Of a DNA stretch of 64,000 nt, positions 11,501-17,500 are shown in pieces (positions within the stretch are counted from its first letter, which is position 1; the number at the start of each line of letters is the position of its first letter). Source of the DNA: Norana najaformis (lineage: Eukaryota; Annelida; Clitellata; Crassiclitellata; Hormogastridae); assembly GCA_964023275.1 (NCBI GenBank), contig OZ029919.1, positions 2,387,001 to 2,451,000 on the forward strand, read 5' to 3'. A program made the translations under genes and the position numbers. Under the pieces are notes generated by a model that saw nothing but the letters and a program-made list of their open reading frames with translations, was not told the DNA's origin and did not search any database.

Positions 11501-14500
11501 CTCTGTGCATTTCTGTTTCTTTGTGCATTTGTATTTCTCTGTGCATTTCTGTTTCTCTGTGCATTTCTGTTTCTCTGTGCATTTGTATTTCTCTGTGCAT
11601 TTCTGTTTCTCTGTGCATTTGTATTACTCTGTGCATTTGTATTTCTCTGTGCATTTGTATTTCTCTGTGCATTTGTATTTCTCTGTGCATTTCTGTTTCT
11701 TTGTGCATTTGTATTTCTCTGTGCATTTCTGTTTCTCTGTGCATTTGTATTTCTCTGTGCATTTGTATTTCTCTGTGCATTTCTGTTTCTTTGTGCATTT
11801 GTATTTCTCTGTGCATTTCTGTTTTTGTATTTCCTCTGTGCATTTGCATTTCTCTGTGCATTTGCATTTCTCTGTGCATTTCTGTTTCTCGGTTCATTTC
11901 TGTTTATGTGGGGCATTTGTATTTCTCTGTGAATTTGTATTTATGTGGGGCATTGGTGTTTCAGAGCTTTGAGATGTTGATCAGCCCTGGAGACAACATT
12001 ATCGTTGACTCTCCTACGTACGCCAGTGCAATTACAGCGGTTAGTATTCTGTCTAATCAGATTTTACTTTTTTGCATTTGAGAGTTTGTCCTATCCCATC
12101 AGTGGAGTTGGTTCAGATTTTACAGGTTTGAAATATCGTACTAAAACAGGGCAAATATAATCCAAATATAATAATAAGAAAAAAAAATACTTTGGTGCTG
12201 TATTTTTTTCTGCAGCTGCGGCCTCTCGGGTGCAAGTTTTTGGCAATTGAAACAGATGAACATGGAATGATCCCTTTGTCCCTTCAGGCCACTCTGTCGA
12301 GGTGTGAGGCTGCGGAGGATGGGACAGGGGAGAAAGGAAGCAGGATGCCAAAGTTTATTTACACCACTCCGAACGGCGTCAATCCAACTGGGGCTTCGCT
12401 CACTGCAGAGAGGAAACGGGAAATCTACAAAGTAACCAGCTGTTGATCATATTTATTTTAATTTTTAATTTCATTCTTTTATTTTTTAAGAATTTTGGAA
12501 ATTTTTTGTAATTAAATTTTTCTAAATGACTTTTAGAAATTTATTTGCATATTGTTTTTCTGTTTTAACTGTTATGAGTTATTCTAAGAATTTTTAAGCT
12601 AATTTCATTATCTTTGTAAGTTTGTAATTTTTAGAGCTTAGGGAAAGAAGACTGCTTTTATTGTTTTTTTTCTGTGTTTCCATATTGGTGAAAATAATTC
12701 CTTTATTCTAGTTTTTGCAAGCCAAATTTTTCTATAATTCTGATTAAAATAAAACTGAAATTGTGTTATGGCAAACTTCTGTAGAAAGTTGAAGTGTCGC
12801 AATTATCATTGTTGTTGCTGTTGTTGTTGTTATCATTGTTATCATTATTATTATGAAAGTTTCTTTTCAGCTTAATGCCCAAAACTGAGTTCTTTCCATC
12901 TTGTGCAGTGACTTGGCCTGAGCTGAGATTTAAAAATATTTTTCCAGATTGCCAGAAAGTATGACCTATTGATCTTGGAAGATGATCCGTATTACTTTCT
13001 CCAGTTTGAAGAGGTACTGATGATAAAAGAATCCTACTCAAATATTTAGTTCATCTTGATTAGTCTGTGTGATTCTTATTCTTAAGTCATTCTGCAAGCT
13101 CACACTCAGCTTTGGGGGAACATTGGTGACTAATTTCAGGCGATTTTAATCAAGTGATTTTTTAGCTAATACCCACACACAAAAACGGGACAGCCATTTC
13201 TTAAATACTGCGTTTTTCTTAAATACTGCGTATCTCTACATACCATTGTTTGACGCCATATCATTAGATAATGGTGCTATATAAAGTTAGGGAATTGATA
13301 ATTGAAGTGATAATAATTTGTAAGGTGGACATTTTGTATTTGTTGAATTACTGTAAAATATTGTTTTTCTTGCAGCCTCGCATACCCAGTTTCTTATCGA
13401 TGGATGAAGACGGCCGTGTTTTAAGATTTGATTCTTTCTCAAAGATAATATCCTCGGGGTAAAGAATATTTTTAACAATACTCTCTTACTTTTACTCTGG
13501 TACTTTTATCCGTTTCCGGTTTTTTAATTTGATGTGGCCAATATGATAGTATCCTTTCTGTATTTGTTTAATTTTAATTTAATTCCATCTTTGTGCTCTG
13601 CTTTTATCCTTAATATTTTTCTTGCTCTTATATTCAGTGCATTTTAATTTTGTTATTGCTATTGTTACTGATGGTCAGTAAGTATGTTAACAAATACAGT
13701 ACAAAATACAATACCGTACAATGGAAGATTGTTCCAAGAGAACAGGAAGGTCCAATACTGGGAGAGGGAAATGAGCCAATACAGTGTTTCTTGCAAGTAT
13801 TTGGACCGTATCTGTATTTCTCAGGTATTTTATAATTGGAAGAAGTTTGCCAGGAGATCAAATTGCTTGCATGGGGACCTCAAATGGCGTGGCGCCCATT
13901 CAAACGGGCAGCAGTGGTGAAAGGCCCCACCCAATAAATTAATTGAAAAATGAGCAGGGTAGAGAATATATAGAAACCATGTACATTAACATTTACTTGC
14001 ACATGCCGGTAATTGCTTCTGAGTGGTTGTTCAGAAAAAGAGCACCAAGAAAATCTGAATTACGCTCTAATAGTAACTTAAACTATTTTTAAATATGTCA
14101 AACGGACTTTTTATTCTGACTTCGTTTTGCTGTTTGTAGTCTTAGGGTAGGGTTTGTAACAGGCCCGACTCCTCTAGTTGAGCGAATAATAATGCATTTA
14201 ATGGTTTCATCCATGCATACGTCAACAATGTCTCAGGTTAGTTTGTAGAAGCAAACCAACCGATTATGGAGCTCTAGAACTCTCATGCTTCAGCTCGATT
14301 AGATAACCTCGTAGTTTCTGACTCACGTTTGCTGAAACTGACTCGTAAAAATTCAGTGGTTCCTCTGTGATGCTGGAATGGACTAATTCCTAACGTGTGT
14401 GTGTGCGTAAAAATGACTAACAATCCTGATTAACGTTGTTTAATCTCACATGCAGTCTGTTATTTATGTGTTTATTGTAAACAGTAATTAACAATACACA

Positions 14501-17500
14501 CATTTATTAGTTCAGTTTCTACACAGACAGTAGTTTTAATTAATTGACTAAAAACTCATATTTACGATATGATGTTTATAATAAACTGTTTATAACAGAC
14601 TGGTTTTTGTTGAAGTAGTTTCGTTTGTAACGTTTTTGGTCTTTTCCTGTTTAGAGGAACAGCTATTTATCTTTGCAATGGGGACATTACAAAAAACAGT
14701 CCTTTTATATGTTGTTTACATTATTTACTATTGCTTCTGCATGTATGCCTCTTTCTAATAATGACTAGGCATCAATCGATGGCGCTGAGCAATTGTGAAT
14801 GAAGGACTTGCTCAGGGTCCCTACACAGTAACCATCTCAGGGGAGGAGGCTCGAACCCGTACCCTCCGCGTTGCAAGCCAGATGCTTTGTCCATTTGGCT
14901 ACTGTGCCCCGCAACATTTCAAAGTAAGTATGTAAATAAACTTCTAGTAATAATTTATCGTAATCGTAATCGTAATCGTAATCTCGAAATTTCTACAGCG
15001 CTCAACGAAAGCTAAGTCGCGGGAACCAGCTTATCCACAGGCGCTCAGTCAAAACAAAATCGATAGGCAAAAGGGTCAAGATCCAGGAGTCAGGCACTCA
15101 GACAGTCGGACGGCTACGGTGGATGCTGTTTGAAACTGAAGCGAGAAGAGAGACAAGAGGAAGAGGAAGAATCAGGATAAGATTTATGAAGGTCTGTGAC
15201 AATAAGAACAGTAGACCTGGCGATAATTATTCATATTTTTATGGACATCCACTTGAGTCTGTTGCATGTTCTTCTGTTGTGGACCAACCTTTTGGAACAG
15301 TCGTCGATTACCGTTCAGTGTGACTTTTGCGGACTTTGTGACTTCTGTTTCGTGTGACTTTTATCCTATCACAAGTGACATCGGTTTAGATCAGCTGGCC
15401 ACGTGTGTAGGTCAGATGCTGAGGACTTTGCCGTCTAGTTCTGTGCACTCAGGAAGTTGTCAGATGTCGGTTAGGTCCGCACTAAAATCCAACATATTTC
15501 AAATTGCTGGTTTTCCCTGGCGATTGTAATTATGGGCTGTGAATAAGCTGGTCCCCATGGCGTGGATTTCATTTTAATCTGTAGAAATCTCGGGATTACG
15601 ATTACTTATTAGCAACCACTTGAAGATGTTCTATCTGATTGTGATCTTGTATTGTCAGATTGGGAGTTTTCTTGAAAGGTGCTATATAAATTTGCACTTA
15701 AGATTGGTTATCGATTCCTTGTGCTTCATGATAACGGCGCTATAGAAGTTCCAGATTAGATTAGACTGAGGCTTAGATGTGGTTTGGTTTTTGGATGTTT
15801 GCAGTCTGAGGGTGGGTTTTGTGACTGGTCCAGGGCCTCTTGTAAAGCAAATAGTGTTGCACTCCATGGTATCTGGTGTGCACGCCGCTGGGTTGTCACA
15901 GGTCAGTGTTATTGTGGCTTTCACTGGGAACACTAGGTGGCAGTACTTGCCGGCTTTCAGTTGCTAGAGCATAAGTGCATTTGCACTTGGAAAGTGCGGG
16001 CTTTGTGCTTTTACGCTTTGGGAGTGCAGCGCTGTTTGCTTTTGCACTTCTGAAGTGCAGGGCTTTGTGCTTTTGCAATCTCGAGTGTGAGGCTTGCTTG
16101 TTTTTCGTCTTTGGAATGCAGAGCTTACGTACTTTATCACAGCTTGTTTGTTAAGTTAGTGATTTTATGTGTGTATGTGCATGACTGCCTGTGTGTCCTT
16201 GTCTGTATCTTTATGTATCTCTGTGGCTTTGTTTCCTTTTCCGGCATTCCTTAACGGTGGGAGTTCTTCAGGGATGCATTATCTGCATATTTCCCAGAGT
16301 GTATCTTTACATAAGACACTGGTTATCTTTGATACTGTTTTTTTCGAGTCTCTGTCTGGTTCCTATCGGGACCTGTCACCCACTATCCTTATGTTTAACT
16401 TTCCATCCTTATCCTCTTTTCCACGCATTTCTTAGGTCTCAAGGTTAAAGAATAAATCATGGATAGGTGGCGCCAGTAAATGTTGGATACTACTTTCACA
16501 TCCTCAGGTTTCTTATCTCTTCTGGTTCCTCTGTCTGTATTTCTCTTACTCTACTTACTGTATACTTATATACTTACTATATACTTTACTTTGTCTGTGC
16601 CTTCCATTTGGGTTGACAGTAATTTTTTCTTTTATCTTTTTCTGTGTAAAGTTTATTTTTATTCGAAGTTGCTGTTAACATTCTTTGTGCCTCAGATTCA
16701 GATTCATTGGCTTTGAACACAGGTTTTAAGTGCTTTAAAAATAAATAAATAAATAAATACTTCTGCATACACTGATCTCTTTACCGTGGTTGCATACTTA
16801 CTTCCCCTTGGGCTAGTACGGTCCATACACGGGGACCTTAAATGGTGTGGTAACCTTTCAAATGGGCAGCAGTGTTGAAGGATCTCACCCAATCAATTCA
16901 CTGAAAAATGAGCAGGGTCAAGGCCATGTGGTCGCTGTAGAGAAACATGTGCATTTAAATTTATTTACCCTTCTTTGACCTTACTTTTATTTTTATTAAG
17001 TTTGTTGACCTCAGCATCTGAATATTTATTTTGTGGCATTCGTTTCTAGGTTATGATGTGTGATCTGCTAAACAGATGGGGCCTGGATGGGTTTGAAGTA
17101 CACGTTAAAGGGTTTGTGTGCTTTTCTGCTGCATTGTATCGTATTTTATGCATCTCTTTCCATCTGAATTGTTTGCCATGTGTATAGTACTTTTGAGAGA
17201 TTTCATAGTACGTACGGTATTAGTTGTGTTACGATTACAGATTTGCAACTGAAATGTACTTGCCGTTTTTCTATGTAAATAAGAGAGCTATGTATTGGGC
17301 ACCTTGGAGAGATTTCGTAATAGGCACTCTATAGATATTCTGTTACAATTCTAATTGAAAAATTACAATTGCATTTTATTTTACACACCTTTTTCTTCCT
17401 GAATAATTGCCGTGTATAAGGCGCTTTTGAGGGATTTCTTAATAGCCATTCTGTAAACGGACACCTTTTTCAGGGTCCCAGTGTTTACGTAAATTTCGTC

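What the first reader, a model, noticed from the sequence alone, without database searches (positions are those of the whole stretch)
14140..15901. AADAT has two mutually exclusive versions of exon 9 that change the active site
Exons 9a (14140-14236) and 9b (15805-15901) are both 97 nt, both enter in phase 2 and leave in phase 0, and both have good splice signals. 97 is not a multiple of three, so using both, or neither, breaks the frame. They share 20 of 32 residues. Both keep the PLP-phosphate arginine (R272), but differ at 294-295 (Ser-Met against Gly-Val), equivalent to human T292-L293. From memory L293 lies at the substrate pocket. One gene could thus make two aminotransferases with different substrate preference. 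I do not know of this for AADAT in vertebrates.
Basis: partly seen in the sequence, partly recalled or inferred. Interest (0 to 1): 0.85.

Follow-up and report, generated by a model that had tools for sequence, protein, structure and literature searches.

The report
Two interchangeable exons in aminotransferase gene
An animal gene for the enzyme that breaks down kynurenine and aminoadipate carries two diverged versions of one active-site exon, so it could make two versions of the enzyme; the DNA supports this well, but no RNA or enzyme data were available to prove it.

Summary
The window carries an intact AADAT (KAT II) gene with 14 coding exon positions, and position 9 is present twice (14140-14236, 15805-15901). 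Both copies are 97 nt, enter in phase 2, leave in phase 0, have GT-AG borders and give an open 434-residue protein. Using both, or neither, gives a premature stop in exon 10. Only exon 9 is duplicated in the window.

The copies share 20 of 32 residues, while third codon positions are near saturation (12 of 33 identical). Simulations reject one copy having been neutral for half or more of the time since duplication at matched divergence. So 9b is not an old relic; recent decay is not excluded.

The switch sits at a plausible place. Human Leu293, a kynurenine contact supplied by the partner subunit, is Met in 9a and Val in 9b. The catalytic lysine lies outside the exon and R270 is kept in both.

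Mutually exclusive use and changed substrate preference remain inferences. No transcripts, related animal genomes or assays were available, and the organism is unidentified (nothing shows a vertebrate). Tandem-duplicated exons tuning an enzyme pocket are a known kind. I found no report of it for AADAT in ten literature searches.

The parts
8543..8609 (+). AADAT coding exon 1 (start codon at 8543)
   Evidence: aligns to human KAT II from residue 1
9722..9821 (+). AADAT exon 2
10552..10620 (+). AADAT exon 3
10987..11119 (+). AADAT exon 4
11965..12039 (+). AADAT exon 5
12216..12431 (+). AADAT exon 6
12948..13013 (+). AADAT exon 7
13376..13458 (+). AADAT exon 8, encodes the PLP lysine K265 (human K263); ends in phase 2
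14140..14236 (+). alternative exon 9a (more human-like, 19 of 32 residues)
15805..15901 (+). alternative exon 9b (15 of 32 residues like human)
17050..17111 (+). AADAT exon 10; premature stop lies here if both or neither exon 9 is used
17824..17888 (+). AADAT exon 11
18780..18886 (+). AADAT exon 12, with a GC donor
19678..19779 (+). AADAT exon 13
20500..20562 (+). AADAT exon 14 with stop codon

Best explanation
Exon 9 of AADAT was duplicated in tandem long ago, and both copies have stayed in use as alternatives. Each mRNA takes either 9a or 9b. Shown: gene anatomy, reading frames, homology, long-term constraint. Inferred: because 97 is not a multiple of three, transcripts with both or neither carry a stop in exon 10 ahead of four more exon junctions and should be removed by nonsense-mediated decay, so one-of-two choice is enforced at least at the level of surviving mRNA. 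The two proteins keep the catalytic machinery and differ in the helix and loop that carry the residue equivalent to Leu293, which lies at the kynurenine pocket of the partner subunit. They most likely differ modestly in substrate affinity or in tissue or stage of expression.
For: Full gene and frames. Only exon 9 is duplicated: every other exon hits once in the window and no third copy is found in 8000-21000. Introns around the copies are unlike (about 30% identical over 100 nt each side), so it is not a duplicated haplotype. pS 0.79, pN 0.23; codon positions 1, 2, 3 identical at 22 of 32, 27 of 32 and 12 of 33. Neutral divergence never gave 20 shared residues in 20,000 runs (maximum 19); with one copy constrained and the other neutral, 0.00175 of 4000 runs did, and 0.001 had pN/pS as low as observed. 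Isoform a and b both match human KAT II (E 3.6e-165 and 1.6e-161). Of 13 kynurenine contacts listed in PMC11582277, isoform a keeps 10 (differences L40M, S143A, L293M). Arg270 is invariant in 12 of 12 bacterial homologues examined and in both copies.
Against: No RNA evidence at all. The 9b acceptor is weaker than the 9a one and has no yUnAy branch-point match within 60 nt, although neither does exon 8. Copy 2 being neutral for only the last quarter of the time is not excluded: P up to 0.33 at 90 steps and 0.92 at 60 steps of the simulation. 9b has changed more than 9a relative to human (5 sites against 1), which fits specialisation but also relaxed constraint. No sign of a physical block to joining 9a to 9b: that intron is 1568 nt and all borders are GT-AG.
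Confidence: 0.75

Rival explanations
1. Exon 9b is a dead or dying relic: the duplicate was used for a time, then only 9a remained in use.
For: 9a is closer to human KAT II (19 against 15 of 32) and 9b carries more private changes. The 9b acceptor is weaker. A neutral phase in the last quarter of its history is not excluded.
Against: No stop in 32 codons, intact borders, best donor of 261 GTs in the region. Neutrality for half of the time or more is rejected at matched third-position divergence (8 of 8 settings with 90 or 130 steps gave P of 0.0033 or less; at 60 steps, which diverges less than observed, P was 0.0067 to 0.062).
Confidence: 0.15
2. The two exons are alternatives, but the proteins are functionally equivalent; the choice serves expression control, for example unproductive transcripts with both or neither exon tune enzyme level.
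For: Both or neither gives a premature stop. Many differences are conservative (for example Ile/Val, Met/Leu).
Against: Constraint on both peptides is not needed for a poison exon. Six positions differ in all three of 9a, 9b and human, and these include the pocket position.
Confidence: 0.25
3. The second copy is an assembly artefact, such as an uncollapsed haplotype.
For: None found; assembly quality of the window could not be tested because the genome search did not complete (11 calls).
Against: Flanking introns are unrelated and the copies differ at 36 of 97 bases.
Confidence: 0.01

Closest known systems
coq-2 exons 6a/6e in nematodes, flatworms, annelids and molluscs (PMC7434440, PMC8659336; passages seen)
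   Same: Two homologous exons of an enzyme, spliced mutually exclusively, that change the core of the active site and thereby substrate choice (4-hydroxybenzoate or the kynurenine-pathway product 3-hydroxyanthranilate).
   Different: A prenyltransferase, not an aminotransferase; there RNA-seq and exon deletions prove the switch. Here there is only DNA.
ACSL6/ACSL1 fatty-acid gate exons (PMC1543647; abstract and outline seen)
   Same: Mutually exclusive exon pair swapping a short motif at the substrate gate of an enzyme.
   Different: Transcripts isolated; different enzyme; transcripts lacking both exons exist.
OGDH exons 4a/4b (PMC7969005; abstract and passages seen)
   Same: Tandem-duplicated exon pair of a metabolic enzyme, used alternatively.
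   Different: There exclusion is enforced by distant branch points and a long AG-free stretch in a short intron. Here the AG-free stretch before 9b is 26 nt and the intron 1568 nt, so that mechanism is not indicated.
Human AADAT/KAT II
   Same: Orthologue-like over the full length; isoform a 57% identical; same catalytic residues at the positions checked.
   Different: No duplicated exon is recorded for it in the papers found: PMC9741552, on 236 human tandem-duplicated exon events, does not mention AADAT in its held main text; its supplements were not seen.

Membership tests
AADAT / KAT II (fold-type I aminotransferase) | Full-length similarity to human KAT II and Aminotran_1_2 domain | tested here: met
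   PDB matches over residues 1-428 for both isoforms; PF00155 E 1.8e-22 and 5.9e-21
AADAT / KAT II (fold-type I aminotransferase) | Catalytic and cofactor residues (human Y142, N202, D230, Y233, K263, R270, R399) kept | tested here: met
   All seven present; 19 of 23 human positions checked are identical in isoform a; R270 kept in 9b too. The roles of some of these residues are recalled
AADAT / KAT II (fold-type I aminotransferase) | Transaminates kynurenine and 2-aminoadipate | not testable with these tools
   No assay
Mutually exclusive tandem-duplicated exons | Adjacent homologous exons of equal length and phase | tested here: met
Mutually exclusive tandem-duplicated exons | Using both or neither is unproductive | tested here: met
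   Stops at codons 339 and 272 in exon 10; decay itself not tested
Mutually exclusive tandem-duplicated exons | Both peptides under constraint | tested here: met
   last quarter of the history unresolved
Mutually exclusive tandem-duplicated exons | Transcripts with one or the other exon observed | not testable with these tools
   No RNA data
Mutually exclusive tandem-duplicated exons | Pair conserved in related species | tested here: inconclusive
   Only prokaryote, virus and plasmid collections could be scanned; own-genome search unanswered
OGDH-type distant-branch-point exclusion | Long AG-free stretch before the second exon and short intervening intron | tested here: not met
   26 nt and 1568 nt

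The most novel reading that the evidence does not exclude
One AADAT gene switches its own substrate pocket by splicing, so that cells choose between 2-aminoadipate (lysine breakdown) and kynurenine or another amino acid. Because Leu293 reaches into the partner's site while the lysine and R270 serve the own site, cells that make both isoforms would form mixed dimers with hybrid sites, giving up to three enzymes. If the host makes rhodoquinone, this would be a second splice switch in kynurenine metabolism beside coq-2.
Probability: 0.12. Interest if true: 0.8.

Novelty: new member of a known kind. Interest (0 to 1): 0.5.

Why it matters
AADAT stands at a branch point between lysine breakdown and kynurenic acid production and is a drug target in humans. 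A natural pair of exon-9 versions, both long maintained, would show which pocket changes evolution accepts and would give a compact test of how one loop sets substrate choice. It would also add an enzyme of primary metabolism to the short list in which splicing, not gene duplication, supplies two versions of an active site.

Tried and rejected
Looked for animal or other relatives: genome contigs with alignment A1 (62 stretches matched a pattern, none a relative) and viral contigs (56, none). Own genome: 11 identical genome-search runs, all answered 'busy'. Plasmid-borne bacterial and archaeal homologues, 12 of the 1655 records with a match, chosen by hand from the 40 listed, served as a distant outgroup. 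They are too distant to date the duplication; NCBIfam scans gave no match above a curated cut-off among the 25 best shown per protein.

Distant branch point: rejected for 9b. Intronic RNA pairing: the only sizeable inverted repeat (69 nt arms, 77%, 14972-15040 and 15537-15605, between 9a and 9b) looks like a repeat element and cannot be judged without relatives; the inter-intron duplex scan timed out without output and was not repeated. Origin of the duplication: 9a and 9b share six residues not in human, of which M291 differs from the Q found in human and in 8 of 12 bacterial homologues. This hints at duplication after the split from the vertebrate line, but it rests on few sites. No fold was predicted, because the spliced protein is not read letter for letter from the window. 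Splice scores use approximate matrices from memory.

Literature: ten searches. 'Kynurenine aminotransferase' with 'mutually exclusive exons': 0 papers. 'AADAT' with 'mutually exclusive': 10 papers, 9 listed; the one opened (PMC9309667) uses the phrase in another sense, the others were judged by title and abstract start only. Searches matched 56 and 103 papers, of which only the 20 and 8 listed rows were seen; none of those rows held 'kynurenine aminotransferase' or 'AADAT'. PMC4848902 was searched for six terms without a hit.

Full report
What is there. The window holds a complete AADAT (KAT II) gene on the + strand, 8543-20562. I placed 14 coding exons by reading frame, splice borders and similarity to human KAT II. 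Thirteen of the 14 donors, counting both 9a and 9b, are GT and one (exon 12) is GC. The protein with exon 9a is 434 residues, 57% identical to human KAT II, and matches human KAT II structures at E 3.6e-165; with 9b, E is 1.6e-161. Pfam gives Aminotran_1_2 for both.

The duplicated exon. Exons 9a (14140-14236) and 9b (15805-15901) are each 97 nt, enter in phase 2 and leave in phase 0. Either gives an open reading frame of 1305 nt. Both together stop at codon 339 and neither stops at codon 272, each in exon 10 and upstream of four further junctions; such mRNAs should be decay targets (inference). Among 401 AG-97-GT frames in the window, 100 of them open, only 9b resembles 9a: score 109, next 2 for a frame with a stop, best open one 0. 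No other exon is duplicated in the window.

Not an artefact, not an old relic. The introns beside the two copies show about 30% identity over 100 nt on each side; 8 of 10 bases match just before the exon, as expected for splice signals. The copies differ at 36 of 97 bases. Identity by codon position is 22 of 32, 27 of 32 and 12 of 33 for positions 1, 2 and 3; pS is 0.79 and pN 0.23. In 20,000 neutral simulations the shared residues never reached the observed 20 (mean 11.7, maximum 19). With one copy constrained and the other neutral, the observed value was reached in 0.00175 of 4000 runs. A second simulation varied how long copy 2 had been neutral. With 90 or 130 steps, where third-position divergence (18.1 to 22.8) comes near the observed 21 of 32, half or more of the time neutral was rejected in 16 of 16 settings (P of 0.0033 or less). 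With 60 steps, which diverge too little (15.8 to 18.3), half-time neutrality gave P 0.0067 to 0.062. Neutrality for the last quarter gave P from 0 to 0.33 at 90 steps, 0 to 0.027 at 130 and 0.048 to 0.92 at 60, so recent decay is not excluded.

Where the change falls. The exon encodes R272 (human R270), kept in both copies and in 12 of 12 bacterial and archaeal homologues examined, out of 1655 plasmid records with a match. K265 (human K263) is in exon 8. At 294-295, 9a has Ser-Met, 9b Gly-Val, human Thr-Leu; the 12 homologues have Asp in 11 and Leu in 9. PMC11582277 and PMC5602025 (passages) list Leu293 of subunit A with Ile19, Arg20, Gly39, Leu40 and Tyr74, and Tyr142, Ser143, Asn202, Tyr233, Phe355, Phe387 and Arg399 of subunit B, as the residues for kynurenine. 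PMC4926479 (passages) says that in KAT-1 Phe278 and His279 come from the other subunit. The KAT-1 match pairs query 110-311 with 93-294, an offset of 17 at both ends, so query 295 would pair with Phe278 if no gap lies in between (inference). The swapped position is thus a pocket position supplied to the partner subunit. The changes are mild, and other active-site differences from human (L40M, S143A) lie outside the switch.

Which copy is older in character. 9a shares 19 of 32 residues with human, 9b 15; five sites are shared by 9a and human only, one by 9b and human only, six by 9a and 9b only, and six differ in all three. Counts are too small for a firm rate test. Shared M291, against Q in human and 8 of 12 homologues, hints that the duplication came after the split from the vertebrate line.

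How the choice might be made. Approximate splice scores put 9a and 9b acceptors at ranks 6 and 26 of 191 and donors at 4 and 1 of 261 in the region. The intron between them is 1568 nt, and the AG-free stretch before 9b is 26 nt, so neither crowding nor an OGDH-type distant branch point (PMC7969005, passages) is indicated. I favour regulated choice with removal of wrong combinations by decay; this is inference.

Comparison. Tandem-duplicated exons that tune a protein are a known class: PMC9741552 (passages) treats 236 human events, and its held main text does not name AADAT. The closest in kind are coq-2, where mutually exclusive exons switch substrate choice in nematodes, flatworms, annelids and molluscs (PMC7434440, PMC8659336; passages), and ACSL6 (PMC1543647; abstract). 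Ten literature searches gave no description for AADAT; the library holds only open-licence papers and long lists were seen in part.

Limits. No transcript, no relative and no assay. The own-genome search did not complete in 11 calls. The organism is not identified: the neighbourhood includes a THSD1-like gene and repeats, and nothing points to a vertebrate. The finding is therefore a strong genomic prediction and not a demonstrated isoform pair.

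Noticed in passing
17874-18516: A 32-nt minisatellite (20.6 copies) starts on the 3' end of exon 11 and its donor. TGGCTCAAAG, the exon end, recurs 18 times, mostly followed by gtaact, and each unit also has an acceptor-like ggcag, so it could offer many rival donors or 20-nt mini-exons.
   Followed up: partly
11258-11942: An 18-nt T-rich minisatellite (37.5 copies) fills most of intron 4 and is free of AG, giving a 707-nt AG-free stretch before exon 5, against 10 to 64 nt for the other introns of the gene.
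   Followed up: partly
18887-18894: The exon 12 donor is GC (AGAG|gcaagaac), the only non-GT donor of the gene.
   Followed up: yes
4634-6688: A 685-residue open frame with a DUF7869 match (E 5.3e-8), probably from a transposable element (inference), about 1.9 kb before AADAT exon 1.
   Followed up: no
22363-28952 (- strand): THSD1-like gene: THSD1_D3 (E 1.2e-7), a below-cut-off THSD1_N match, CUB (E 7.2e-8) and TSP_1 (E 5.6e-8) in separate open frames. A CUB domain beside THSD1 domains may be unusual (recalled).
   Followed up: no
197-2890 (+ strand): Pieces resembling the C-terminal part of an RBM26/27-type protein by recall only; Pfam gave no match to the two pieces tested.
   Followed up: partly
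14972-15040 and 15537-15605: Inverted repeat, 69-nt arms, 77% complementary, in the intron between exons 9a and 9b; arms resemble a repeat seen elsewhere in the window (by eye).
   Followed up: no
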